In this document: positions 11,603 through 34,946 of the stretch, in pieces
Layout: every line of letters begins with the position of its first letter
Position numbering within the stretch: the stretch's first letter is position 1
Assembly: GCA_027491415.1 (NCBI GenBank)
Contig: JAOZFH010000013.1
Span: forward strand, 1 to 61,089
Source of the DNA: Thermoproteota archaeon
Lineage (GTDB): Archaea; Korarchaeota; Korarchaeia; Korarchaeales; Korarchaeaceae
Reading direction: 5' to 3'
DNA: 61,089 nucleotides
The notes under the pieces: generated by a model
The model's database searches: none
What the model was told of the DNA's origin: nothing
What the model saw: the letters and a program-made list of their open reading frames with translations, nothing else
Program-made: the position numbers and the translations under genes

Positions 11603-11974
11603 TTACTCCACCCGCCAGAACTTGAGCCCGTACTTCCTGAGCCTGTCGTAGTGGCGGACGTTTCTCGTGAGGAGGGGGACTCCGTTCGCTATGGCCGTGG
11701 CCCCAATGAGTAGGTCTCTGTCGTCCAGAGAGGCGCCCGACCGCCTGAGGTCTCTCCAGATCTCCGTCGCCTTGGACACCACCCTGTTGTCCAGCGGAAC
11801 CACCTCGAATATCTCCTCGAGCAGCCTCTTCGCCAGGGTGGGATCAGCCTTCCCCCTGACGAACTCGTAGAGGGTCACGATGGAGATCTGGCACAGTGCG
11901 TCGGGGAGCTCCTCCCTCCCCCTGTCCACTTCGATCAGGAAGTCTGTGTCTAGAAGGACCCTCTGAGGCCTAAT
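11603..11974 (-). CDS. vapC: VapC-type PIN-domain toxin, probable AUU start
   Basis: 123 residues when read from ATT at 11974. The PIN acidic residues are all present: LLDTDFLI, TLYEFVRG, LDDRDLLIGATA and the TRNVRHYDRL region. The nearest standard start (GTG 11929) would remove the first catalytic Asp. In this frame no ATG, GTG or TTG occurs between an upstream stop and LLDTD, but a strong GGAGGTGA lies 7 nt before the ATT at 11974. The gene overlaps the antitoxin by 25 bp. The domain call is secure; the start codon is inferred from the ribosome-binding site and motif position. Confidence 0.88.
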   Translation of the reverse strand: MRPQRVLLDTDFLIEVDRGREELPDALCQISIVTLYEFVRGKADPTLAKRLLEEIFEVVPLDNRVVSKATEIWRDLRRSGASLDDRDLLIGATAIANGVPLLTRNVRHYDRLRKYGLKFWRVE

Positions 11975-12216: not shown

Positions 12217-14313
12217 TTACCAATTTTCGATATATCTATTAATAATCAACCGACGACCTGGCCGCTCTGAGCGAGTTAGCCTCACCAGGGCCCTGAACGG
12301 CCTGGCCGCCCTGTCGAGCCACGCGAGGTACCTCTCCACCGAGTAGCCCCCGGGGCCCAGGTCGACCGGGTAGGGGGTCCTGGCCTCCACGTACCTGACG
12401 GCCCCCGCCGACCCCGTTTCGGGTCTGAGCCCCCGAGCCGCCACGACGTGGGACGGGGATCTCTCATACCCTCTTGGATCTCTGGACAGCCTCCTCTCCA
12501 CGACGAGGTCGGCGAGGTCCACCTCGCCCCGAGCCAGCCTCTGGGCCCAGGCTCCGAAGACTTCGACGGCCCTGATCGACGCCCCCTCGAGTTCCCCGGG
12601 TGACTCGGCCCGCTCCAGCTCGGACAGGGCCTCCATCGCCGCCTTCCGAACCACCTGCGGCGCGTCCCTCCTGGCGAACTCCAGCCCCTTCACCTTGAAC
12701 GCGCCCCACTCAGTCTCTCCAGACAGAAGCCTCCCCAGGTACTTGGAGGGCACCCCCTCGCCCGTCGTGACGCCCGAGAAGAAGGCGACCCACTCGTACT
12801 CGGCCTCCACCTTCAGACCGTATCCGGTCTCCCGCTCCACGATGCGAACGAGCTCTTCGACGCTGCCGGCCTCGGGGGTGGGCTGGACGAACAGGGAGTC
12901 AACCAACACGTGGAGCACCCTGTAGCCAGCCCCCTCGGCGGCCCTGACGGCCCTCCTGGCGACGTCCCTCGCCAGGGCGGTGACGCACTCGTAGGCCTCT
13001 ATGCTCCCGAACCTGGCGTTCCTGTACCCCAGGTAGCCGAAGCACGCCACGAGCACCCACTTGACCGCAGCCTGGGCGGACTCATACCTCTCGGCGTCCG
13101 CACCCCCGAGCCGGGCCAGCTCCCTCAGCCTGGCCCTCCTATCCACGAGCCTCCCGACGGCCTCTGAGACGAGCCCCCTCCTGTCGAGGCATATCAAGTG
13201 GCCGACCTCCGGGACCTCCCTGCGGGGGCCGGGGCACGAGGGGTCGTTCACCGTCTCGGGGCTCACGTTCTCCCTGGCGATTATGGAGGGGTAGAGTGAG
13301 TTGAAGTCGAGCTGGTAGACGTCCCAGTAGACCCCGGGCCTGGGGGTGAGCACGAGCCCGCCCCTGTCGGCGGCCAGCAGCCGGGAGGGGCTCTTCCAAG
13401 ACTCAACGAACCTCCTCGCCTCCGGTATCAGGTACCTCCTGCGGAGGGCCTCGAAGGCCTCCGCACTGGTGAGCACCTGGCCGATGGTGGCGTCGACCAC
13501 CCGGCTCAGCGGGAGGGCGGAGAGGCGGGACCACTCCACGGCCCCCCAGAGGCCGATCCCCAGGGGAGGGGGCCTGCGCAGGACGACCGCGCCGGCGGCC
13601 TCCGGCCCCCCGGCCACCCCCGGGACCCTCAGGGCCAGCTCGGCCCAGCCCGGCGAGTCGAACGCGACCACGTGTGGGAGGAGCGACTTTATGGCGTCCG
13701 CCAGCTCTCCGGACCTGGCCCTCTCCACCGATAGCTCGATCGGCTCCCCCTGGGGAGGGGAGAGCCTGACCCGATCCACGGTCTCCCAAGAGGGAGCGTT
13801 CGGCGCGCCGGCCCACCCCAGGAAGGACACCCTCACGGCCCTGAGCTCAGGGACCTCGTATGGGACGGAGCCGGGGTCCTCCAGGGGCCTCACCTCCCCG
13901 CCCCTCACCTCGACCCAGGAGCACGCCGTCGCCCCCCTGGCCCGTATCGCCCTCTGGATCAGGGAGGGGAACCTGTTCCACGCCTCCGCCAGGCCCAGCT
14001 CTTGAGCCCTCCTCAGTATCAGGCGGGCCTCCCTCGGCCCGCAGTCCACGACTAGGACGTCGGCCTCCTCCCTGTACCTCGGGGGCAGGAGCCACCGCTC
14101 CACTTCGACCGAGAGGACGCCCTCTAGCTCGGACAGGGAGTCCGCCAGCCTCTCGAGGCCGACGGACCTCGGCGTGAGGTAGAGCCTCTCCCTAGCCGGC
14201 ACCTCCGCCATGGACGGGTCGCCGGACTCGCCCAGGAGGGTCAGCCTCAGCGACTCCCCGTCCACCCGGGCATCCAGGAGCCAGCCCCTCAAGCCTGGCG
14301 CGACGGCCCCCAA
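12217..14313 (-). CDS. Family B DNA polymerase, PolB2 type with altered active sites
   Basis: 698 residues. Polymerase motif A is intact (DFNSLYPSII, about residue 334). Motif B (about 420) is KWVLVACFGYLGYRNARFG; the usual Asn of the KxxxNSxYG motif is replaced. Motif C (about 471) reads HVLVDSLFV, where the canonical YGDTDS has lost its first Asp but kept the second, metal-binding one. The N-terminal exonuclease region lacks a clear ExoI DxE, so proofreading is probably absent. These substitutions match the archaeal PolB2 (Dpo2) group, whose members show weak or specialised synthesis. It begins with TTG and stands alone; there is no operon partner. Confidence 0.82.
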   Translation of the reverse strand: MGAVAPGLRGWLLDARVDGESLRLTLLGESGDPSMAEVPARERLYLTPRSVGLERLADSLSELEGVLSVEVERWLLPPRYREEADVLVVDCGPREARLILRRAQELGLAEAWNRFPSLIQRAIRARGATACSWVEVRGGEVRPLEDPGSVPYEVPELRAVRVSFLGWAGAPNAPSWETVDRVRLSPPQGEPIELSVERARSGELADAIKSLLPHVVAFDSPGWAELALRVPGVAGGPEAAGAVVLRRPPPLGIGLWGAVEWSRLSALPLSRVVDATIGQVLTSAEAFEALRRRYLIPEARRFVESWKSPSRLLAADRGGLVLTPRPGVYWDVYQLDFNSLYPSIIARENVSPETVNDPSCPGPRREVPEVGHLICLDRRGLVSEAVGRLVDRRARLRELARLGGADAERYESAQAAVKWVLVACFGYLGYRNARFGSIEAYECVTALARDVARRAVRAAEGAGYRVLHVLVDSLFVQPTPEAGSVEELVRIVERETGYGLKVEAEYEWVAFFSGVTTGEGVPSKYLGRLLSGETEWGAFKVKGLEFARRDAPQVVRKAAMEALSELERAESPGELEGASIRAVEVFGAWAQRLARGEVDLADLVVERRLSRDPRGYERSPSHVVAARGLRPETGSAGAVRYVEARTPYPVDLGPGGYSVERYLAWLDRAARPFRALVRLTRSERPGRRLIINRYIENW

Positions 14314-22960: not shown

Positions 22961-23110
22961 CAGGCCACCCAAGTAAGGGGGACCATTTCTGGTAGCTGCC
23001 GGCGTTCGTCGCCGGGAGGCGGAGGGTCGAGGGTCTCCGGGGAAATACGATCAACGTTTTTACGTCCTGAGTGAATGATACGATGGCGATCCGCGGGGGA
23101 ATCGGGCAGA

Positions 23111-23500
23111 ATGACCAGGATAGACCTCACACGAGTTATGGAGGCTTTGATTCGGAGAGAGGAGATCCTATTCGCCTACATCTTCGGCTCAGCCGCCGAG
23201 CAGAGGGACTCGGAACTCAGCGATGTGGACATCGCAGTCTACCTGGACCCCTCTCTGCCGCGGACTAGGATGCTGGAGATATTGGCTGAGATCGCGAGCG
23301 AGCTCGAGCCTGGGCTCAAGGTGGACCTCGTCCTCCTCAACACGGCGTCGCCGAGCCTGGCCTTCGAGGCGATAAGGGGGAAGCCGGTCGTCGTCAGGGA
23401 CGAGGGCGCGCTGAAGGAGTTCGTCTACAGAACCCTCAAGGTGTATCACGACAGGAGGTACTACGACTTGAGATGGGCGAGGGCGGTCCTAGCGAGGTGA
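23111..23500 (+). CDS. mntA: MntA-type nucleotidyltransferase antitoxin
   Basis: 129 residues. YIFGSAAEQRDSELSDVDIAVYLD holds the GSx9DxD catalytic motif, and VDLVLLN gives the third acidic residue. MntA antitoxins neutralise HepT by adding AMP to a tyrosine of the toxin. ATG 23111 is preceded by a weak GGGAATCGGGCAGA. Three in-frame or nearby ATGs at 23071-23084 are upstream alternatives; a TATA-like GTTTTTACG at 23054-23062 gives a start near 23085 and favours 23111. The HepT gene follows with no gap. Confidence 0.88.
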   Translation: MTRIDLTRVMEALIRREEILFAYIFGSAAEQRDSELSDVDIAVYLDPSLPRTRMLEILAEIASELEPGLKVDLVLLNTASPSLAFEAIRGKPVVVRDEGALKEFVYRTLKVYHDRRYYDLRWARAVLAR

Positions 23501-23506
23501 GTGAGG

Positions 23507-23944
23507 ATGTACTTTGCTGAGAAAGTGTCCAGAAAGATAGCCGTCCTTGAGAGAGCGTTGGGCTACCTCAGATCCAGGGCAGACGTGACTCCTGAGCAGA
23601 TCGAGGAAAACTATGAACTGAGGAGCGCCTTGGAGAGGAACTTCCAGGTCGCGATAGAGGCGGCGCTGGACATAGGAGAGATGATAATCGCTGAGGAGGG
23701 ACTCCCCAGGCCAGAGGAGTACAGGGGGGTATTCCTAGAGCTCGGGAGGGCGGGCATACTCCCGAAGGATTTTGCAGAGAGGATAGCGCCCATGGCTGGC
23801 TTCAGGAACGTGCTGGTACACCAGTACGATGTGGTGGAGCCAGAGCGTCTGTGCGAGTTTCTGAGAGATAGGCTCGCCGATCTGGAGGACTTCCTCAAGT
23901 GTGTGAGGGCCTACATGAGGAGGAAGGGCGTCGCCCAGCCCTAA
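23507..23944 (+). CDS. hepT: HepT-type (DUF86) HEPN toxin
   Basis: 145 residues. The helical HEPN fold has ERNFQVAIEAALDIGEMIIAE followed by the RNase motif RX4HXY in RNVLVHQY, intact here; the tyrosine is the AMP acceptor in studied MntA/HepT pairs. ATG 23507 lies six bases after the antitoxin stop (GTG 23501 directly abuts it). In contrast to the pair at 14520-15251, both members of this one are intact, and it sits between the two copies of the PhzF-EamA duplication. Confidence 0.9.
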   Translation: MYFAEKVSRKIAVLERALGYLRSRADVTPEQIEENYELRSALERNFQVAIEAALDIGEMIIAEEGLPRPEEYRGVFLELGRAGILPKDFAERIAPMAGFRNVLVHQYDVVEPERLCEFLRDRLADLEDFLKCVRAYMRRKGVAQP

Positions 23945-25375: not shown

Positions 25376-25600
25376 TTGGTCGCCGGGACTGATCTGCGCA
25401 GGGCCGCCGAGATCCTAGCGTCTTCCTCTCGAGCGGTTGCGTACACGGGAGCTGGCGCGCGCGGCGACCCCCTGAGGCCTTCAGTAGGGACCCAAGGAGG
25501 GTCTGGGAGTGGTACGCCTGGGGGTAAGGAAGGTGCTCTCTACGGTGCCCACGTGGCCCACAGAGTGCACGAGGGGACCTCGAACTTGCCCAACCTACTG
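25376..25600 (+). pseudogene. Sir2/sirtuin N-terminal remnant
   Basis: TTG 25376 reads DLRRAAEILASSSRAVAYTGAG, the start of a sirtuin up to the NAD-binding GAG. The expected continuation is in another frame: PEAFSRDPRRVWEWYAWG, matching the sirtuin segment where a phenylalanine-rich and VWEWY stretch follows the GAG loop. Later codons degrade further and no catalytic HG or zinc cysteines follow. It is a dead fragment of about 75 codons. Confidence 0.6.
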
Positions 25601-25649
25601 CTCCTGGGAGCGCGGCCCTTTAATTTGGAGTTCGATCCGGGGATTTCAC

Positions 25650-25859
25650 GTGGACCCGTCGATCCTGCACGACATGATGTCCATGCTCATCATCGTGCTC
25701 GGGCTCGTGATAGTCATACTACTACTCAAGGCCGTGCTGATGCTACTCATCCCTGGGGCCGTGGGGGTGGCTGTGTACTGGCTTACGGGGAACCTCAGGT
25801 GGGCGGCGCTGGCTTTCCTAGCCGTAATAATAATCGAGGTACTGAAGGGAAAGAAGTGA
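25650..25859 (+). CDS. Small membrane protein
   Basis: 69 residues: MDPSILHDMMSM, then two hydrophobic helices (LIIVLGLVIVILLLKAVLML and AVGVAVYWL...WAALAFLAVIIIEVL) and KGKK. GTG 25650 is placed by CTTTAATT at 25618-25625, 28 nt upstream, so the mRNA is leaderless. No family is recognised. It ends 6 bp from the convergent stop of the giant DUF11 gene. Confidence 0.6.
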   Translation: MDPSILHDMMSMLIIVLGLVIVILLLKAVLMLLIPGAVGVAVYWLTGNLRWAALAFLAVIIIEVLKGKK

Positions 25860-25865
25860 GGGGCT

Positions 25866-28800
25866 TCAGACCCCCTCACTCGATACTGCCATCTGGAAGC
25901 CCACCTCTCTCTCGGTGAGGACACCTCTGGAGACCATCTCCTCGACAAACTCCCTCGGGGTCTTCACGTCGAGGGAAACCTCGGCGCCGGCCTCCCTCAG
26001 GGCCTCTCTTGAGGATATCAGCGACCTGGCGTTCATGGCCATGGCCATCGCGAGGGACTCGGCCTCGTCCCGGTCAACGCCAAGGCTCTCGGCCAACTCC
26101 CTGACGATTCTTGCGGTCCCAGCCTCGGCGGTAACATCCTGAACCTTCAGCACGCCTGTGGATAACAGACGCCCAACGCTCGCCCCCACGGTCGGATCAG
26201 AGAGCAGGATTGATGCGGTCCTCCTGGGTGTGTATATCCTCCACGCCCTAGAGACCCCGTCCTCGCCCAGCGATAGAATCAGGCTCTTCAGGGACTCCCT
26301 GTCGACAACCACGGGCCTGCTCCTGATCGGAAGGAACGCCAGGATGATCAACATCCCTGAGAGTGCTGTGGGGATTATAGACGAGCAGCACTCCGCCCCC
26401 TTCCCCCCGACGAGGACTCTGTTGCATCCGGCGTCGTTCACGGTGACGGTGTAGGCTATCCTGACTGTCCCCCCGGGACCCAGGCTCAGGTTGAGGATGA
26501 GCCTCCCCGACTCCACCCTCGCCTCGGCGGGGCCCCCCACCTCGATGCTGTCCGGATTCAGGACCCACCCCTCGGGGAGCAGGTCCACGAGCTCACCTGA
26601 GAAGGTCCCGTTCCCCCTGTTCACAACTGTAACGACTATTCTGGCCGTGTCCCCGCTCTTCACCTCATTGGGGCAGGCCTTGGACACCTCTATGAGCGGG
26701 ACGTAGGTTGGCCTCACGTAGACCAGCGCGGTGGCGTTGGACTCGTCGGCCGCCGCCACGTTGACCATGTCACCCTCCAGCAACGTGACCTTTGCCTCCA
26801 GCGTGAGGTTTACGCACTCCCCGGGGGCCAGAGGACCCACCCTCCAGTCAGTCTGTCCGAGCGGCTGGAGGCCTTCCGGCAGGAGATCGACCACGTGGAC
26901 CTCCTCAGAAGGCGCGTTGCCAACGTTGCAGACGGTTATGCGGAATCTCACAACTTGCCCTCTCCTGGCCACTACCGGGTCGGCGACCTTTCCAACGTAC
27001 ATCAGCGGCCTGGGCTGGGTCTGATTGCCAGGGGAGACCGACGGCGGCTGGGTGGGTGGGGGAGTTGGGGAACTCGGCGGCGGGGGCGGCGGAGTGGTGG
27101 TCGGGGGCTGCTGCGGGGTCGGGGGCGGCACGGCGAGTAACACGTCGGAGTCTCCGACGGGGCCGCAGGAGCATGTCCAGTTCACCTCACCCCTGTTCCT
27201 CATGTATCCGAGCCCGGAGACCTCAACGGCGAACTCCAGGGTGAGATGCTCGCCGGGGTCGAGCGACTGGGTGGTCCTCCAGATGAGCTCCCTACCCACC
27301 CTCACAGGGTCTGGGGCCGAGACCCCCCCGATCCTGGTGGATCCGGGGACGTATCGCACGCTGTCTGGCATCAGGTCCCTGAAGGTCAGGTTCAAGGCCG
27401 TCGCGTTTCCTTGATTGGTCACCATGAGGTACACCCTGACCCTCGAACCCTGGGTCACAACCGAGGATCCGAAGGTCTTCCTGAGTCGAAGCGTCGCGTA
27501 AGATGCGGAGAGCTTCGCGCTGGCCGTGCTCGAGCTCCGTCCCCCGGCCCCGTCCTCGCCATAGCCGGTGACCCAGTTCACGCACCCGCCGGTCCCGCAG
27601 GCCGCCCTAACGGTGAAGTTCACCTTTATGGCCTCGCCGGGGTTCAGCGTCAAGCCCAGATTCCAGATCAGCGTGTTGCCCGAGATGGTTGGATCAGGCG
27701 TGGAGATTACCTCTCCAGTCGAGCCGTTCACCACCACCGTCGTGTTGGGGACGTACTCGAGTCCCTCGGGAAGGTCGTCCACTATCGTGACGTTGTACAT
27801 GTGACCGAGGCCCCTGTTCCAGAAGGTCACGCTCACCGCGACCTCGGAGCACTCCGTCGTCTCGGCAGGAACGAACTCCTTCGCGATCTCTGGGACCGGG
27901 GACCTCACAACTTCGATTCCGCAGGAGTCGCCGTCTAGGTACTCCGCGCCCGTCTCCGGGTTGGCCTCCCTCCCGCATGAATCGAGATACGCGAGGGTCG
28001 CGTTCACATAAGCCCTCGCGCGGTCCGGCGTGAGGGCCCTTATCGTGACGGTGAAGTCCCTCTCCTCCGTCTCACCGGGCTGCATGTCGTCCAGGGTCCA
28101 CGTTATCCTGTGCAGTGCGGGATCGTAGCTCCCTCCCTCCGAGCCAACGTAATCCACGAAATCGGGTAGGTCAACCCAGTAGGTGAGGTTGTGCGCGGTG
28201 CCCCCGTCGGGTAGGCTCTGCAGCCTGACCGTGAAGTTCAGCAGGTCTCCGGGCTCGGGGGAGATCGGGCAGCCCCCGGAGTGTGACACGAGCGAGATAG
28301 AGACGTTCGGGTAGAGGAGCCCCACCTCGGCCGAGTCGGCCACTCGCTCGCACGTGAACCCCCCGCACCCCCAGCTGACCTCTACGTAGTCCCTCATGAC
28401 CTGGCAGCCGGTGGCGTTGGCCCTGATCAGTACCGCGAAGCTCTCGCCCGGGCCGAGGGAGGGAACGCTCCACACCACTCGATTCGGGGAGGAGCTGACC
28501 CTCACGTCGGACCTGTTGTCGTAGGAGTACTCCATGCCCGTGAGTATGTCGGTGACGTTGACGTCCCTGGCCGTCCCGTTTCCGCCGTTCGAGACCACTA
28601 TCGTCCACTCAGCCAGGTCTCCCCAGTCTCTCCTCTGCTGGAGAGGCTCCTTGGAGACGTTTACTGCCGGGATGAGGACCTGCAGGGGGCCAACAGGATC
28701 GGAGTCGGAGAGAAACTCGCCGCAGGCGCCGTACCAGCTGCCTCGGGCCTCGAAGGTCCCGCCGGGCGCGGAGCAGCAGCCGGCGCTCAGGAGGAACTCG

Positions 28801-31800
28801 ACGTTTATGGACTCTCCCGGCTCCACTTTCACACCAGACAGCTCCCACAGCAGCTCGACGGTCCCTCCGGCGGCCGAGACCAAAGGGTCGACGTGGAGGA
28901 CGGTGCCGTTCGGGAGCGTGACGTTTGCGGAGCCATTCACGTAGGAGGCGCAGGACGACTGCGGGAACCTGTACGCAAGCCTGACCGGCATGGAGGAGTT
29001 GAACCCGTAGGCCGCCCCGTCCCCGGTGTTCGTGACGGTGAAGTTCACACTCTCGACCGCGCACCTCTCCAGCCTCCCGTCGAAGCCGTTGGCCACGTCT
29101 ATCCCGGCCACAGCCCTCTCAACGCTCACCCAGGACTGGACCTCGTTTCCTGAGCAGAATACGCCGTCGCAGCCCCACCTGAAGCTGGCGGCGTTGCTAT
29201 ACTGGAGCGGGCAGCCGGTGGCGTTTGCCCTCACGCGAATGTCCAGGCTCTCCCCCGGCTCGAGCGGGTCCGCGACTAGGCTGATGTTCCACGTTATCAC
29301 CCCGTCCGATAAGGAGGTGGGGGTCACGTTGGCTCCAGCGAACTCCAGGCCGCCCCCGAGGGAGTCGGTGATTGTGACGAAGTAGGCCGCCCCGTCCCCC
29401 GTGTTCGTGACGGTCAGGTCCCACACGAGTTCTCCCCACCTGTCGACCCTCCCGGCGGGGGCCACCAGGACCTTCTGGCTATTCGAGAGGTCGGGCCTCA
29501 TGTCCGAAGCGGAGAATACCGTGATGTTGGTGTAGTTTTGGCTGCACGCATCCCAGTAAGTGAAGTTGACAACCTCCCTCGTGGGGGCCAGGCTGCAGTT
29601 GGCGTGCACCCTAAAGCTCAGGGAAACGTCCGCCCCCATCGGGACGGCCACGTCCTTCAGAGTCCATATGATCGTCCTGTGCGACCCGCCCTGCACTCCG
29701 GTGAAGTTGCTGGGAACGTTGGCGTAGGACGGCCCGCCCGATACGGAGATGTTTGCGCTGACGTTGCCGTCTGGCAGCACGTCGATCGGTTCAAGACCGA
29801 ATGGAAGCGTTTCATTGAACGAAATTCCATACATGGTTGCCCCGTTGTTGTGTACTGTGATCGTGATCGTCTTGTTTCCACAGACCTCAAAGCTCCTCGG
29901 ACTCTTGTCTATGGCGGAGGGCAGCCCGCAGGCCAGCACCTCGGCCTCGGCCGACGCCGGTTCGGAGCATGCAGGCCCGCACCCCCAGTAGGCTGCGACC
30001 GTGTCGGTGGCGTTTGGAGGAGGACACTCGACGAGCCTTGCCCTCAGATCAACCGCGAAGGCCTCTCCAGGATCGAGGGAGATGTTCGTCCACGTCAGAT
30101 CGGTGTGGCTCCCCGGCACCACCTCAGTCGCGTTGGGCGGCGGGTCCGCGTCGACGTACTCGAACCTCGAGTTCAGGCGGTCCACCAAGGTCACGTTGGG
30201 GGCGGTGGCGTTCCCCACGTTGGACACCCTGAGGGTCCAGGTCACGGTCTGATTGATGTCGGCGTACTGGCTCTCGGGCTCCTTGGTAACTCGGAGGACT
30301 GGGACGAGCACCTCGTCCCTCCCGGACCTGCTCCCGTCTCTGTCCTCTCCGCAGGAGTTCACGAACCCGTCGGTCTGAATCGTGTGGTCTGCCCTAGCGA
30401 GTGTGCAGTCTGGGGAGGTGACGTTGTAGCTGACCTCGAAGTAATCTCCGGGATCGAGCCTCCACGTGTCGTTGATGACGTACCACCGAATCCCCCCTCC
30501 CGAAGGCTCCTCGACCCACACGTACGCGGTGACGCCCGGGGGCGGGGGATCCATGTACGCGTAGACGGGGAGGTACGTGTCCGTGCCCTCCGAACTGTCG
30601 TGGAACCGGACGACCGTGTTCTCCTCGAGCGGGGTGGCCGCCTGCACCCCCGTGGCCAGCGTTTCGCTGACCACCAGCTGCCCGTCCGGAACGCGCAGGG
30701 GAAGGCAGGGGTCGGGATTCCTGATCCTGAACCTCCAGGTGGCCTGCCCGCAGGCCTCAGCCGTGTCGTCGAGTATTCGGACGCTTATTCGGCTCGGGTT
30801 GCTGCGGAGGTATGAGGTGCCGTTGTACCACTCCTCCTCGTACACGCAGCCCTCGCAGCCGTCCCGCACCCCGACGTGGAGGTAGGCCCTGCTGGCGCAG
30901 TCCACCACATCGGCGGTGATGGAGATGCTCAGGGAGCCCCCGGGTGGGATGTCGTCGAGAGATCCGCCCTCGGAGGTTGGGCGCCACTCCAGCACCCTCC
31001 CCGTGACGGCGTCCGGATCCGGCGTTGCCGAGACGTAGGATGCGGCGGGGGGGAGTTCTACCGTGACGCCCACGTTTCTGGCGTCGGAGTCACCCACGTT
31101 GACCACATCCACGTTCCAGACTATCCGGTCTCCCCTCTCACCGCAAACCCTAGGGTCGGCCTGCACCGTGAGGTCCGGCCTCCTTAGCGCGTAGTCGGCG
31201 GAACCGGACGTCAGGATCTCCGCGGCCTGCTCCGCGCAGGGCTTGTCGTAGGTGACCCTCATGGTCGAGCGCCCTCCCCCGTCGCTGCACGGGCAGCTCG
31301 CGATCGCTCCGAACGTGATGTTGACCTCCTCCTCCCTCTGGAGTGTGGAGAACGCCGTACCGGAGAGGTCCCAGACCACCCACCTCAGTGCCGGGTCCAC
31401 CTGGGCTGGAGACAGGGGAGTCGAGTAGGTGGAGTTGAACGCCCTCGCCGTGGCCGATGAGTTGTAGTAGAAGCAGGGGGGGAGGGTGTAGTTCACCGTG
31501 ACGTTGTAGACGTCGATCGGGCCGACGTTCTTCACCACGGCGGTCACGTTGGCACCGCCGCACAGGTCCACGGGGTTCGGCTCCAGGTCGTCGGTCGCGT
31601 ACAGCTCGCCATCCGGGACGACTACGTCTGAGTCGTCCCACACGACCTGACAGGGCTGGGAGCAGCAGCCCCACGATGCGTTCACCAGGTCGGTCAGGCC
31701 CGAGCAGGCCACCATCTTGGCGCGGAGCGTGATGTTCACCATGTCTCCGGGGTCGAGGGTCCCGTTCGTTAAGGTGACGGTCCTCCCGTCGGCCGAGACC

Positions 31801-34460
31801 GTCGTGAGCCAGCCCGCGGGGGTCGTGCTGGCGCTGTACCTGAGCCCGCCCCCGAGGTGGTCGACCACCGTGACGTTTCTCGCGGTTCCATTGCCAGAGT
31901 TGTAGAGCCAGATCCTCCACTCGACCGTCTGGGAGACCGCGTAGATCCTCTCGGGCTCCTTGTAGATCACCAGGTATGGCCTGAGCGTGGGCTGACCGCC
32001 GCTGGTGTAGACCTCATGCCAGACGCACTGACACTGCGGCTCACACGCGCCCACGGCCTGACACTTGTCCGAGTAATCTAGGGTGGACCTGTAAACGTAT
32101 CCGGACCTTACCGGGCAGCACGGGGTCACGTTGTAGTAGATCGTGAACCCAGTGTCGACCACCGAGAGCTGGGGGACGTTTGTGACGTTCCAGATCAGCA
32201 GGTCCCCCTGGAGGATTGGGTCAACCCCGGTCAGGACAGTCCCGTTGTCGAACTCCACCACGGAGGGGCCCAGGAACTCAAGTCCAGAGGGAACCTCGCT
32301 CGTGACGGTCAGGTTGTACCCGGGCGAGGACGCGGTGGCCCCAGAGACCCTGACCCTCCTCTCCTCAAGCCCGCAGACGTCCGTGTACGGTGGGCGAGAC
32401 TCCGATATCCCCAGGTGGGGCCTCCCGACCTCCACGTATGCGGCCCACCTCTCCTCCCCCCCGCAACCCAGGTTCGTCCCGTCAGAGGCCGTGGCGTTGA
32501 GGGAGAGCCCCATCCTGTCGTGGAGGTACCCGCCAGCCGTGCACCTCACCCTCACCGGGTAGGATATCTCCAGCGTGTCCCCGGGGCTAGTCACGAAGTT
32601 CAGCTCGCTCAGGTTCCAGTAGATGCACGCGCTCGTCTGGAGGTAGGGCTCCAGCGTGACCTCCGTCCCGTTGGGGAGGGTGACCCTGGTTGGCCCAACG
32701 TAGGTCTCCTCGAGGTCGCCCGTCTCCGCGGCGCAGTGGGAGAACGTGACGTTGGAGAGAGTGGAGTTCATGCCGTCCACGTTGAACGTCACGCGGGTCG
32801 TGTACTCCAGCGGGTCGCACGCCTCCACGGAGGAAGAGTTGGCCTCGCCCCTCACGAGGAAGCAGTCCGTCTCGTTCGAGCAGGTGAGCCTGATCGAGTG
32901 GGAGTCGGAGGACGAGGTAGAGCAGCTGGCGCAGCATGTGAGCTCCACATCCGCGGAGTTCGCGCCCCAGTCGCCGCACGACGAGCCCTCGGATCTCTGG
33001 ACGGTGACGTTGATCGTGACGTTCTGAGCCCTCAGGTCCCACGAGATCACTCCACCCGCCGTCGAGTTGGGCTGAGGCTCCGCAGACACGAGGCTCAGGT
33101 GTTCGGGCAGCCTGTCAGTGACCCTGATCCTCGGGGACGGGCATGGGTCCGCCCCGTAGACGTGGACGGTCAGGGTGTAGTTTGACGCCGAGGAGTTGAG
33201 GACCTCGTGGGGGCCGTCCTTCGCGACGGATACTGACGGGGAGGAGGTGGGGATCTGGAAGAAGTCCACGCCCGCCCTCCAGGGCTTGTTGCACTGATCC
33301 TTGTACGTTGGAAGGAACACCACCGTGCCAGACCCGCTCGCGCCGCAGTCGGCCGTGACGTTGAACGAAATGCGCTTGAGGCCGCCGGCAGGGAGGTCTC
33401 CCAGGTGAAAGGTCAGCTCGCTGCCGCGAACATCCGGTTGAGGGGACCCGGTACCCGAGACGTAGTTCAGTCCGCTCGGCAGCCTCAGCGTCACGTTGAG
33501 GGACCTGGCCGCCCCATCCCCCACGTTCTCAACGGCGACCACCACCTCGGACTCCTCGCAGGGTGTGACCGGCGACGGGGCCACCGACTGACCGGCCATC
33601 AAGATCCTCGGAGTCTTGGGTTCGAGTATTATTGAGGCCACGGCCCAGTCGCCGTGGCACTGGCCAGAGCAGGTGACGTAGGCGCTTGCGTTGTCGACCA
33701 GGCCCTCGCACCCGTCCACGGACGCCGCCAGGGTGACCTCGAAGACCTCCCCAACCGCGAGGGAGATGTTGGTCCAGTACATCCTGCCGTCCGTAGTGAA
33801 ACCGTCGGGGTCCGGGACCGCCCCAAGGTACCCAAGGGAGCTGCCGAGCCGGTCCACGAGCGTGACGTTTACCGCCCGGACGAAGCCCACGTTCTTCACT
33901 CGGAGCTTCCACTGGACGACGTCGCCCACCTCCGCCTCCTGGGTGATTGGCGTCTTCTCCACGATTAGCGCGGGTCTGAGGACTTGGAAGGGGTCGGACT
34001 CGTCCGAGGAGGCGTAGGTGTTCCCCTCCTCGTCCTCGTACGTGACCGCCGCCCTGAGGTACGGGCTATCGGGAGAGGAGCAGCTGGATGAGAGGTTGAA
34101 CCCAACTGTGAGATGCTCCCCGGGCTCCAGAGGGTCGAACCCGACGTTGGATAGGTTCCAGATCAGCTCTCCCCCGGAGACCGTCGGATCGACCTGCGTG
34201 CCATTAACGTACCCCGTTCCCCACACGTAGGAGACGCCGACCGGCTGGGTCACCGCGACCACGACGTTCGTGGCGTTTCCATCCCCCGTGTTCGAGAGCC
34301 TCACAGTGAAGTTGGCGGGGATGCACTCGCCCACCTTGTCGGGAGCGAGGGCGGAGATCTCGACGTTGGGCGCAGGCCCCTGGGACTGGATTACCGACAG
34401 GGAGGGCAGCTGAGTCAAGATCAAGGTCAGGGCAGCCAGGGCCCTGAGCCGGTAATCCAA
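25866..34460 (-). CDS. Giant multi-domain DUF11 surface protein with cytoplasmic PIN-like tail
   Basis: 2864 residues. A signal peptide (1-28) is followed by about 20 tandem Ig-like DUF11 domains of 110-140 residues, each recognisable by NVGxGxAxNVTVxDxLPxGL and ending in PGExxxFxxx. Most have cysteine pairs and many NxT/S sequons, suggesting disulfides and heavy N-glycosylation. A proline/threonine-rich linker lies at about 2443-2478, two more DUF11 domains follow, then a membrane helix (2688-2712). The last 150 residues face the cytoplasm and look PIN-like: VVVDRESLKSLI, IYTPRRTASILL, DRDEAESLAMAMAMNARSLIS, TPREFVEEMVSRGVL. Part of the acidic set is missing. TTG 34460 follows GGAGGT located in the end of the upstream gene, so the pair is coupled. 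Confidence 0.9.
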   Translation of the reverse strand: MDYRLRALAALTLILTQLPSLSVIQSQGPAPNVEISALAPDKVGECIPANFTVRLSNTGDGNATNVVVAVTQPVGVSYVWGTGYVNGTQVDPTVSGGELIWNLSNVGFDPLEPGEHLTVGFNLSSSCSSPDSPYLRAAVTYEDEEGNTYASSDESDPFQVLRPALIVEKTPITQEAEVGDVVQWKLRVKNVGFVRAVNVTLVDRLGSSLGYLGAVPDPDGFTTDGRMYWTNISLAVGEVFEVTLAASVDGCEGLVDNASAYVTCSGQCHGDWAVASIILEPKTPRILMAGQSVAPSPVTPCEESEVVVAVENVGDGAARSLNVTLRLPSGLNYVSGTGSPQPDVRGSELTFHLGDLPAGGLKRISFNVTADCGASGSGTVVFLPTYKDQCNKPWRAGVDFFQIPTSSPSVSVAKDGPHEVLNSSASNYTLTVHVYGADPCPSPRIRVTDRLPEHLSLVSAEPQPNSTAGGVISWDLRAQNVTINVTVQRSEGSSCGDWGANSADVELTCCASCSTSSSDSHSIRLTCSNETDCFLVRGEANSSSVEACDPLEYTTRVTFNVDGMNSTLSNVTFSHCAAETGDLEETYVGPTRVTLPNGTEVTLEPYLQTSACIYWNLSELNFVTSPGDTLEISYPVRVRCTAGGYLHDRMGLSLNATASDGTNLGCGGEERWAAYVEVGRPHLGISESRPPYTDVCGLEERRVRVSGATASSPGYNLTVTSEVPSGLEFLGPSVVEFDNGTVLTGVDPILQGDLLIWNVTNVPQLSVVDTGFTIYYNVTPCCPVRSGYVYRSTLDYSDKCQAVGACEPQCQCVWHEVYTSGGQPTLRPYLVIYKEPERIYAVSQTVEWRIWLYNSGNGTARNVTVVDHLGGGLRYSASTTPAGWLTTVSADGRTVTLTNGTLDPGDMVNITLRAKMVACSGLTDLVNASWGCCSQPCQVVWDDSDVVVPDGELYATDDLEPNPVDLCGGANVTAVVKNVGPIDVYNVTVNYTLPPCFYYNSSATARAFNSTYSTPLSPAQVDPALRWVVWDLSGTAFSTLQREEEVNITFGAIASCPCSDGGGRSTMRVTYDKPCAEQAAEILTSGSADYALRRPDLTVQADPRVCGERGDRIVWNVDVVNVGDSDARNVGVTVELPPAASYVSATPDPDAVTGRVLEWRPTSEGGSLDDIPPGGSLSISITADVVDCASRAYLHVGVRDGCEGCVYEEEWYNGTSYLRSNPSRISVRILDDTAEACGQATWRFRIRNPDPCLPLRVPDGQLVVSETLATGVQAATPLEENTVVRFHDSSEGTDTYLPVYAYMDPPPPGVTAYVWVEEPSGGGIRWYVINDTWRLDPGDYFEVSYNVTSPDCTLARADHTIQTDGFVNSCGEDRDGSRSGRDEVLVPVLRVTKEPESQYADINQTVTWTLRVSNVGNATAPNVTLVDRLNSRFEYVDADPPPNATEVVPGSHTDLTWTNISLDPGEAFAVDLRARLVECPPPNATDTVAAYWGCGPACSEPASAEAEVLACGLPSAIDKSPRSFEVCGNKTITITVHNNGATMYGISFNETLPFGLEPIDVLPDGNVSANISVSGGPSYANVPSNFTGVQGGSHRTIIWTLKDVAVPMGADVSLSFRVHANCSLAPTREVVNFTYWDACSQNYTNITVFSASDMRPDLSNSQKVLVAPAGRVDRWGELVWDLTVTNTGDGAAYFVTITDSLGGGLEFAGANVTPTSLSDGVITWNISLVADPLEPGESLDIRVRANATGCPLQYSNAASFRWGCDGVFCSGNEVQSWVSVERAVAGIDVANGFDGRLERCAVESVNFTVTNTGDGAAYGFNSSMPVRLAYRFPQSSCASYVNGSANVTLPNGTVLHVDPLVSAAGGTVELLWELSGVKVEPGESINVEFLLSAGCCSAPGGTFEARGSWYGACGEFLSDSDPVGPLQVLIPAVNVSKEPLQQRRDWGDLAEWTIVVSNGGNGTARDVNVTDILTGMEYSYDNRSDVRVSSSPNRVVWSVPSLGPGESFAVLIRANATGCQVMRDYVEVSWGCGGFTCERVADSAEVGLLYPNVSISLVSHSGGCPISPEPGDLLNFTVRLQSLPDGGTAHNLTYWVDLPDFVDYVGSEGGSYDPALHRITWTLDDMQPGETEERDFTVTIRALTPDRARAYVNATLAYLDSCGREANPETGAEYLDGDSCGIEVVRSPVPEIAKEFVPAETTECSEVAVSVTFWNRGLGHMYNVTIVDDLPEGLEYVPNTTVVVNGSTGEVISTPDPTISGNTLIWNLGLTLNPGEAIKVNFTVRAACGTGGCVNWVTGYGEDGAGGRSSSTASAKLSASYATLRLRKTFGSSVVTQGSRVRVYLMVTNQGNATALNLTFRDLMPDSVRYVPGSTRIGGVSAPDPVRVGRELIWRTTQSLDPGEHLTLEFAVEVSGLGYMRNRGEVNWTCSCGPVGDSDVLLAVPPPTPQQPPTTTPPPPPPSSPTPPPTQPPSVSPGNQTQPRPLMYVGKVADPVVARRGQVVRFRITVCNVGNAPSEEVHVVDLLPEGLQPLGQTDWRVGPLAPGECVNLTLEAKVTLLEGDMVNVAAADESNATALVYVRPTYVPLIEVSKACPNEVKSGDTARIVVTVVNRGNGTFSGELVDLLPEGWVLNPDSIEVGGPAEARVESGRLILNLSLGPGGTVRIAYTVTVNDAGCNRVLVGGKGAECCSSIIPTALSGMLIILAFLPIRSRPVVVDRESLKSLILSLGEDGVSRAWRIYTPRRTASILLSDPTVGASVGRLLSTGVLKVQDVTAEAGTARIVRELAESLGVDRDEAESLAMAMAMNARSLISSREALREAGAEVSLDVKTPREFVEEMVSRGVLTEREVGFQMAVSSEGV

Positions 34461-34463
34461 GGA

Positions 34464-34946
34464 TCAGACCTCCTGGCCGAGGTACATCCTCAGGACCCCC
34501 TCCAGGTCCCCCCGGAGGTTCGAGTCGCTGGCCCTCGACAGGACCCTCGACAGAGCCTCTCCAAGAACCCTTTCGTCTGGGTGTCTCGCTACGGCCTCCT
34601 CCACGGCGGCGCGGAGTTCGGAGGGAGTCTTGCACGTGGCCAAGGCTTCCTCGACCTCGTCGGCCAACGTGACCCACTCCCCCAGCCGGGGGTCCACCAC
34701 GAGGAGGTACAGCCCCGCGCCCACGAGGGCCGACCCCGCGGCCCCGACGAGGAGGTAGGCCGTCCCGAGACCCAACACTATCCAAGACAAGAGCGTGAGG
34801 AAAACCCCGACGGCGACCAAGGCGGCCCCCATGAAGCGATACCGCCTCGCAGTCTCCCGGATTTCCTCCAACCTCTTAAGGAGGATCCGCTTGCGCTCCG
34901 CCTGGAGGAGCGCGGCCTCCTGCCCCTTAGACGATATCAATATCAC
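34464..34946 (-). CDS. Membrane partner of the giant surface protein
   Basis: 160 residues: an N-terminal amphipathic helix (AALLQAERKRILLKRLEEIRETARRY), two adjoining membrane helices (about 38-82) and a C-terminal helical domain (DEVEEALATCKTPSELRAAVEEAVARHPDERVL). Its stop lies 3 bp before the giant gene start and its last codons contain that gene's ribosome-binding site, so it should be made together with it. It may anchor or signal for the giant protein's cytoplasmic tail. TTTTATTAAG near 34977-34986 is its TATA box. No known family. Confidence 0.65.
   Translation of the reverse strand: MILISSKGQEAALLQAERKRILLKRLEEIRETARRYRFMGAALVAVGVFLTLLSWIVLGLGTAYLLVGAAGSALVGAGLYLLVVDPRLGEWVTLADEVEEALATCKTPSELRAAVEEAVARHPDERVLGEALSRVLSRASDSNLRGDLEGVLRMYLGQEV

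What the first reader, a model, noticed from the sequence alone, without database searches (positions are those of the whole stretch)
25866..34946. Giant DUF11 surface protein with a PIN-like cytoplasmic tail and a coupled membrane partner
Seen: signal peptide, about 20 tandem DUF11-like domains, a proline linker, one membrane helix, then 150 cytoplasmic residues with the strand/helix order of a PIN domain (VVVD at the start, EAES in the middle, TPREF...GVL at the end). The fourth acidic position is SSRE rather than an Asp. The 160-residue two-helix protein directly upstream is coupled by a ribosome-binding site inside its last codons. Inference: an envelope-spanning device that links an outer stalk to an RNA-binding or (pseudo)nuclease module inside the cell. 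I know of no described system with this layout.
Basis: partly seen in the sequence, partly recalled or inferred. Interest (0 to 1): 0.82.

Follow-up and report, generated by a model that had tools for sequence, protein, structure and literature searches.

The report
Giant archaeal surface protein, pseudo-PIN tail
A giant surface protein of a korarchaeon-like archaeon ends inside the cell in a degenerate nuclease-fold (PIN) domain; its relatives sit in a conserved envelope gene set next to membrane-bound DNA-binding-type proteins, pointing to an undescribed system that may link the cell surface to gene regulation.

Summary
Window 25866-34460(-) encodes 2864 aa: signal peptide, DUF11 repeats (15 significant stretches), Pro linker, two more DUF11/CARDB-like domains, one TM helix, 152 cytoplasmic residues. 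A 160-aa two-TM protein lies directly upstream, with AGGAGGT overlapping its last codons.

The tail is a PIN-fold domain: profile-profile match to the same genome's PIN proteins (hhalign 95%, E 3e-8; shuffled null best 0.15), and Foldseek hits dominated by VapC/Nob1-type PINs. It is degenerate: only the first Asp is universal, the second acid is lost, the fourth mostly lost, and one lineage lacks the C-terminal half. Nuclease activity is unlikely.

The tail occurs in giant surface proteins across the phylum (19 of 29 genomes). Most lie in a cassette A-B-C-D(-E): two surface proteins, the giant stalk-tail, a two-TM protein with a winged helix, and a membrane protein with tandem winged helices. 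Methanococcus-like archaea have A-B-C with the tail on a separate membrane protein, sometimes followed by E. The window copy is a divergent member whose partner has no recognisable winged helix; in the sister species tail and partner decayed together while the stalk stayed intact.

Most likely mechanism: a dead PIN domain docking membrane regulators to a surface stalk. Function is inferred.

The parts
25866..34460 (-). Giant stalk gene (type C), 2864 aa, TTG start
   Evidence: open frame; DUF11 15 significant stretches, E 1e-108
34380..34460 (-). Signal peptide, residues 1-27
   Evidence: hydrophobic N-terminus; the equivalent segment is kept in the sister species
27129..34379 (-). Extracellular DUF11-like stalk, residues 28-2444
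27006..27128 (-). Proline-rich linker, residues 2445-2485
26391..27005 (-). Two membrane-proximal DUF11/CARDB-like domains, residues 2486-2690
   Evidence: best DUF7507 and CARDB stretches 2488-2575; DUF11 at 26739-26996
26325..26390 (-). Single transmembrane helix, residues 2691-2712
25869..26324 (-). Cytoplasmic degenerate PIN-fold tail, residues 2713-2864
   Evidence: homologues in 19 of 29 phylum genomes, hhalign to PIN E 3e-8, Foldseek top hits PIN/VapC
34464..34946 (-). Two-TM membrane partner, 160 aa (P0002)
   Evidence: 35% identical homologue directly after the tail gene in G006; decayed in G001
34468..34474 (-). Shine-Dalgarno AGGAGGT inside the last codons of the partner gene

Best explanation
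An envelope-spanning adaptor. SHOWN by sequence: an extracellular DUF11 stalk anchored by one TM carries a cytoplasmic PIN-fold domain that has lost most of its catalytic acids; relatives lie in a conserved cassette whose neighbouring gene products are membrane-embedded proteins with cytoplasmic winged helices (D: two TM + wHTH; E: TM + tandem wHTH). INFERRED: the dead PIN domain does not cut RNA but serves as a cytoplasmic docking or dimerisation surface for the co-encoded two-TM partner. In the full cassette, assembly or disturbance of the surface layer (A, B and stalk C) would be passed through the stalk-tail to D and E and so to transcription, perhaps of the surface genes themselves. In the window copy the two-TM partner P0002 has the same position and general anatomy as D but no recognisable wHTH, so here the pair more likely anchors or regulates the stalk than binds DNA itself.
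For: PIN fold: hhalign of all tails against 11 PIN proteins of the same genome prob 95, E 3.1e-8, score 52; 40 column shuffles best E 0.15, reversed profile 0.33, three unrelated families 0.31-0.56; PDB profile hit 2lcq (Nob1 PIN) E 0.0012; Foldseek with the window tail: top nine hits all PIN, best PAE0151 prob 0.92; with a relative's tail (pLDDT 78) top hit a VapC toxin prob 0.98 and nearly all of the first 24 PIN. Degeneracy. Cassette: D = two TM + wHTH (MarR_2 E 3.6e-6, HTH_24 E 1.6e-5; D to D-prime hhalign E 2e-16), E tandem wHTH (HTH_20 3e-19; HTH_24 4e-18). Independent lineage: methanogen-like genomes with A-B-C, the tail on a separate one-TM protein (hhalign E 3.7e-8) and in two genomes E next door (blastp 1e-13 to 1e-19, extending beyond the wHTH part). 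Reverse search from the methanogen tails finds this genome's own C61 tail, E 6e-5. Tail-partner linkage: homologous partner adjacent in G006; in sister species G001 tail and partner both decayed while the stalk ORF stays open with dN/dS 0.29.
Against: No wHTH is detectable in P0002, and its homology to D is weak (hhalign prob 18-25%, TM region only). Subfamily 3 carries the tail but has no cassette neighbours. Tailless DUF11 proteins exist (G001; contigs C36 and C30 of this genome), so the stalk can work without the tail. No physical interaction, expression or DNA-binding data. Gene adjacency may reflect shared expression only. AlphaFold model of the window tail has low confidence (pLDDT 60).
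Confidence: 0.5

Rival explanations
1. Structural anchor only: the degenerate PIN domain and the two-TM protein hold a giant stalk in the membrane or help its assembly and export; the winged-helix genes are in the operon merely to regulate it from the promoter side and do not touch the tail.
For: In the window and in G006 the partner has no recognisable wHTH; subfamily 3 has the tail with no neighbours; G026 and others differ in E; tailless stalk retained in G001.
Against: D is itself a membrane protein with a cytoplasmic wHTH in all 15 s1/s2 loci whose downstream gene could be read, which is unusual for a plain operon repressor; E is kept together with the cassette in two distant archaeal groups.
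Confidence: 0.3
2. Membrane-tethered ribonuclease or RNA-binding module: the PIN domain still acts on RNA, either alone or by completing the active site of another PIN protein, as SMG5 does for SMG6 (PMC12923823).
For: First Asp invariant in all 26 tails and the third acid present as D/E in part of subfamily 1, including the window; two members keep an Asp at position four; the genome encodes about 30 other PIN proteins.
Against: Second acid lost in nearly all tails, fourth mostly lost, and the g3 tails end before strand 4; no antitoxin-type neighbour. The invariant Asp may be structural.
Confidence: 0.12
3. Decaying remnant: the window copy is on its way to loss, as in the sister species, and has no current function.
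For: Sister species G001 has only a broken tail and a broken partner; the window partner lacks a wHTH.
Against: Frame open over 2864 codons, intact SD and partner ORF; a homologous intact pair in another genus; wider family intact in most genomes.
Confidence: 0.08

Closest known systems
PIN-domain nucleases (VapC toxins, Nob1; Pfam PF01850)
   Same: Same fold and strand/helix order; profile-profile and structural matches
   Different: Catalytic tetrad incomplete, C-terminal half missing in one lineage, fused to a TM helix and a giant surface stalk, no antitoxin partner
DUF11 (PF01345) surface repeat proteins of archaea and bacteria
   Same: Extracellular repeat stalk, signal peptide, C-terminal TM
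   Different: Ordinary members end in a few basic residues after the TM, as do the C36 and C30 proteins of this genome; this one carries a folded cytoplasmic domain
Membrane-anchored one-component transcription regulators (ToxR-like; membrane-bound archaeal wHTH proteins)
   Same: Genes D and E of the cassette: TM helices plus cytoplasmic winged helices
   Different: Sensor stalk and DNA-binding part lie on separate proteins, with a pseudo-PIN tail as the possible link (comparison from general knowledge)
TbsP-type regulators (Pfam PF19138 TbsP_N)
   Same: Three tails give weak matches to TbsP_N, best E 3e-4, and in G019, G015 and G016 the tail is the listed match in the whole genome
   Different: All below the curated cut-off and covering about 45 residues; a lead only

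Membership tests
PIN-domain superfamily | PIN alpha/beta fold and order of elements | tested here: met
   hhalign E 3e-8 against null 0.15; Foldseek hits mainly PIN; AF2 models of modest confidence
PIN-domain nuclease (VapC/Nob1) | Four conserved catalytic acidic residues | tested here: not met
   Acid 1 in all tails; acid 2 lost in nearly all; acid 3 in part; acid 4 in two or three
PIN-domain nuclease (VapC/Nob1) | Metal-dependent RNase activity | not testable with these tools
   needs protein
VapBC toxin-antitoxin | Adjacent small antitoxin gene | tested here: not met
   Neighbours are two-TM proteins, wHTH membrane proteins or surface proteins
DUF11 (PF01345) surface proteins | Significant DUF11 repeats | tested here: met
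   E 1e-108, 15 stretches
TbsP_N (PF19138) | Score above the curated cut-off | tested here: not met
   Best 21.3 bits, cut-off 27.1
Membrane-anchored transcription regulator (partner gene) | TM helices plus a DNA-binding wHTH in the partner | tested here: inconclusive
   Met for D and E in relatives; not detected in the window partner P0002
S-layer protein | Forms the regular surface lattice | not testable with these tools
   Gene A is the most conserved surface protein of the cassette but its role is unknown

The most novel reading that the evidence does not exclude
A previously undescribed archaeal envelope-to-chromosome signalling apparatus, old enough to be shared by korarchaeon-like and methanogen-like archaea: a surface layer complex (A-B-C) reads its own assembly state and passes it through a catalytically dead PIN domain to membrane-bound winged-helix regulators.
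Probability: 0.35. Interest if true: 0.9.

Novelty: categorically new. Interest (0 to 1): 0.74.

Why it matters
Archaea have few known ways to sense the state of their cell envelope. A conserved cassette that physically spans from a giant surface stalk to a cytoplasmic pseudo-nuclease domain and membrane-held DNA-binding-type proteins would give a concrete, testable candidate. It would also be a use of the PIN fold, known as a nuclease, as a non-enzymatic membrane adaptor. The methanogen-like versions would put it within reach of cultivable organisms. I found no description of it in the papers I could search, which are an incomplete library.

Tried and rejected
Single-sequence Pfam and PDB searches with the window tail gave no meaningful hit; only family profiles did. 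The search for related loci failed on the diverse tail and gene B alignments; a narrower alignment worked but gave only four further tails usable for structure prediction, because loci of the fetch from genomes are not on the list structure prediction accepts, so I did not submit them. TbsP_N as the true family: searched in 198 further genomes, nothing at E 1e-6, kept as a lead. P0002 as an ordinary D protein: only weak TM-region similarity. PIN-like part in the two-TM protein of G077: suggestive against the whole tail family (prob 74%, E 2.8e-5) but not against PIN proteins, not relied on. Literature: no paper on the cassette; the archaeal dark-matter and membrane-protein surveys (PMC4158269, PMC5898192), searched by keyword, show no such system.

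Full report
OBSERVATION. The frame 25866-34460(-) is open for 2864 codons from a TTG start, with a signal peptide, DUF11 repeats (E 1e-108, 15 significant stretches), a proline linker at residues 2445-2485, one TM helix at 2691-2712 and a 152-residue cytoplasmic tail. One correction: two DUF11/CARDB-like domains lie between linker and TM. The 160-aa upstream protein (34464-34946) has two TM helices; AGGAGGT at 34468-34474 overlaps its last codons and the next start follows after 7 nt, so the two genes are very probably co-translated.

THE TAIL IS A FAMILY. A protein search of 61 genomes found tail homologues in six other genomes and in a second giant gene of the same genome (contig C61, 3124 aa). 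A profile of the first seven tails matched 19 of 29 genomes of the phylum. Reading the loci shows the tail at the very C-terminus of long open frames, after a TM and basic residues. Three subfamilies: s1 (window, C61, G004, G006, G012, G013, G015, G016, G017, G019, G026), s2 (G003, G007, G008, G009, G011, G022) and s3 (about 1260-1320 aa, beta-helix plus DUF11 stalk, beside a topoisomerase gene). In s2 the one stalk scanned (2547 aa, G003) has no significant DUF11; in the G015 3258-aa stalk only one DUF11 stretch is significant. So the stalk varies while the tail persists.

THE TAIL IS PIN-LIKE. Against 11 PIN proteins of the same genome the tail profile scores hhalign probability 95, E 3.1e-8; the best of 40 column-shuffled controls was 0.15, the reversed profile 0.33, and three unrelated families 0.31-0.56 (these E-values are for a single comparison). 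s1 drives this (E 8e-8); s3 (0.0025) and s2 (0.012) alone are weak. A PDB profile search finds 2lcq, the Nob1 PIN domain, at E 0.0012. The AF2 model of the window tail is of low confidence (pLDDT 60) but has the b-a-b-a-a-b-a-a order, and its top nine Foldseek hits are PIN proteins; the tail of G016 gives pLDDT 78 and a top hit to a VapC toxin with probability 0.98, E 7e-3. No Foldseek hit passes E 1e-3, so the fold claim rests on agreement of several lines.

IT IS PROBABLY NOT A NUCLEASE. In the joint alignment with real PIN proteins the first Asp (VVVD) is present in every tail. The second acid is replaced by S, D, Q, K, R or N in nearly all. The third is D or E in 7 of 11 s1 tails, including the window (GVDRDEAESL). 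The fourth is Asp only in C61, G004 and one s3 member; the window has SSR. The tails of G012, G013, G015, G016 and G019 stop before the fourth strand.

THE CASSETTE. In s1 and s2 the tail gene C is preceded by A (about 700-750 aa, alignment mean column identity 55%) and B (about 220-260 aa, one TM) wherever the contig reaches far enough, and followed by D: two TM helices and a C-terminal winged helix (MarR_2 E 3.6e-6, HTH_24 E 1.6e-5). The D of s2 is longer but homologous over TM and wHTH parts (hhalign E 2e-16). C61, G004, G017 and G008 also have E, a membrane protein with two winged helices. The window copy and G006 differ: no A or B was seen beside them, and the partner is P0002-like, upstream in the window and downstream in G006. 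P0002 resembles D only weakly, in the TM part (prob 18-25%).

A SECOND LINEAGE. Gene A has homologues in 12 genomes outside the phylum. In several of them A-B-C is followed by a one-TM protein of about 450-530 aa whose cytoplasmic end matches the tails (hhalign E 3.7e-8); there the tail is on its own membrane protein rather than on the stalk. In G217 and G234 an E-like protein with tandem winged helices follows (similarity to the korarchaeal E of C61 extends beyond the wHTH part). A search from these tails finds the C61 tail of the window's own genome. Thus tail and stalk are fused in one group and separate in the other, and tail and E travel together in both.

SISTER SPECIES. In G001 (same genus) the stalk's first 1500 residues are 86% identical and under purifying selection (dN/dS 0.29, SppA control 0.24), with signal peptide and TM kept but no tail; a tail fragment with stops lies 7 kb away and P0002 is at 32% identity with stops. 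Tail and partner were lost together and the stalk was kept, which fits a functional pair, though it is one case.

MECHANISM. I favour a docking role for the dead PIN domain. PIN domains commonly dimerise (general knowledge), and an inactive PIN can act by pairing with another, as SMG5 does with SMG6 (PMC12923823). Where the partner carries a winged helix, the simplest reading is a surface-to-transcription link; where it does not, as in the window, an anchoring or assembly role is as likely. Direct evidence for any interaction is missing.

ORGANISM. Related contigs are titled Thermoproteota or Crenarchaeota archaeon MAGs. That G090/G200/G217/G234 are Methanocaldococcus-like is inferred from gene order beside a citramalate-synthase-like gene, also from memory.

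Noticed in passing
window 23075-23944 (+): Polbeta nucleotidyltransferase gene followed directly by a HepT-like gene: a MntA-HepT type toxin-antitoxin pair.
   Followed up: partly
window 25376-25918 (+): ORF whose start (RRAAEILASSSRAVAYTGAG) resembles a sirtuin N-terminus by eye; no Pfam match at 1e-3. Possibly a gene remnant.
   Followed up: partly
window 11603-11929 (-): PIN-domain protein (PF01850 E 8e-9), one of 31 PIN matches in this genome.
   Followed up: no
window 12217-14313 (-): DNA polymerase family B match over part of a 698-aa ORF.
   Followed up: no
L132:3079-3615(+) (G077): Two-TM protein after a tail protein whose cytoplasmic part looks PIN-like itself (prob 74% against all tails, not against PIN proteins): possible pseudo-PIN pair.
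   Followed up: partly
L060, L062-L065, L067-L069, L072, L075: Subfamily 3 tail proteins (beta-helix plus DUF11 in the one scanned), with a topoisomerase gene next to them where the contig reaches and no cassette partners.
   Followed up: no
L018 (contig C36) and L019 (contig C30): Further DUF11 proteins of the same genome (724, 826, 1649 aa) that end in short basic tails without the PIN-like domain.
   Followed up: no
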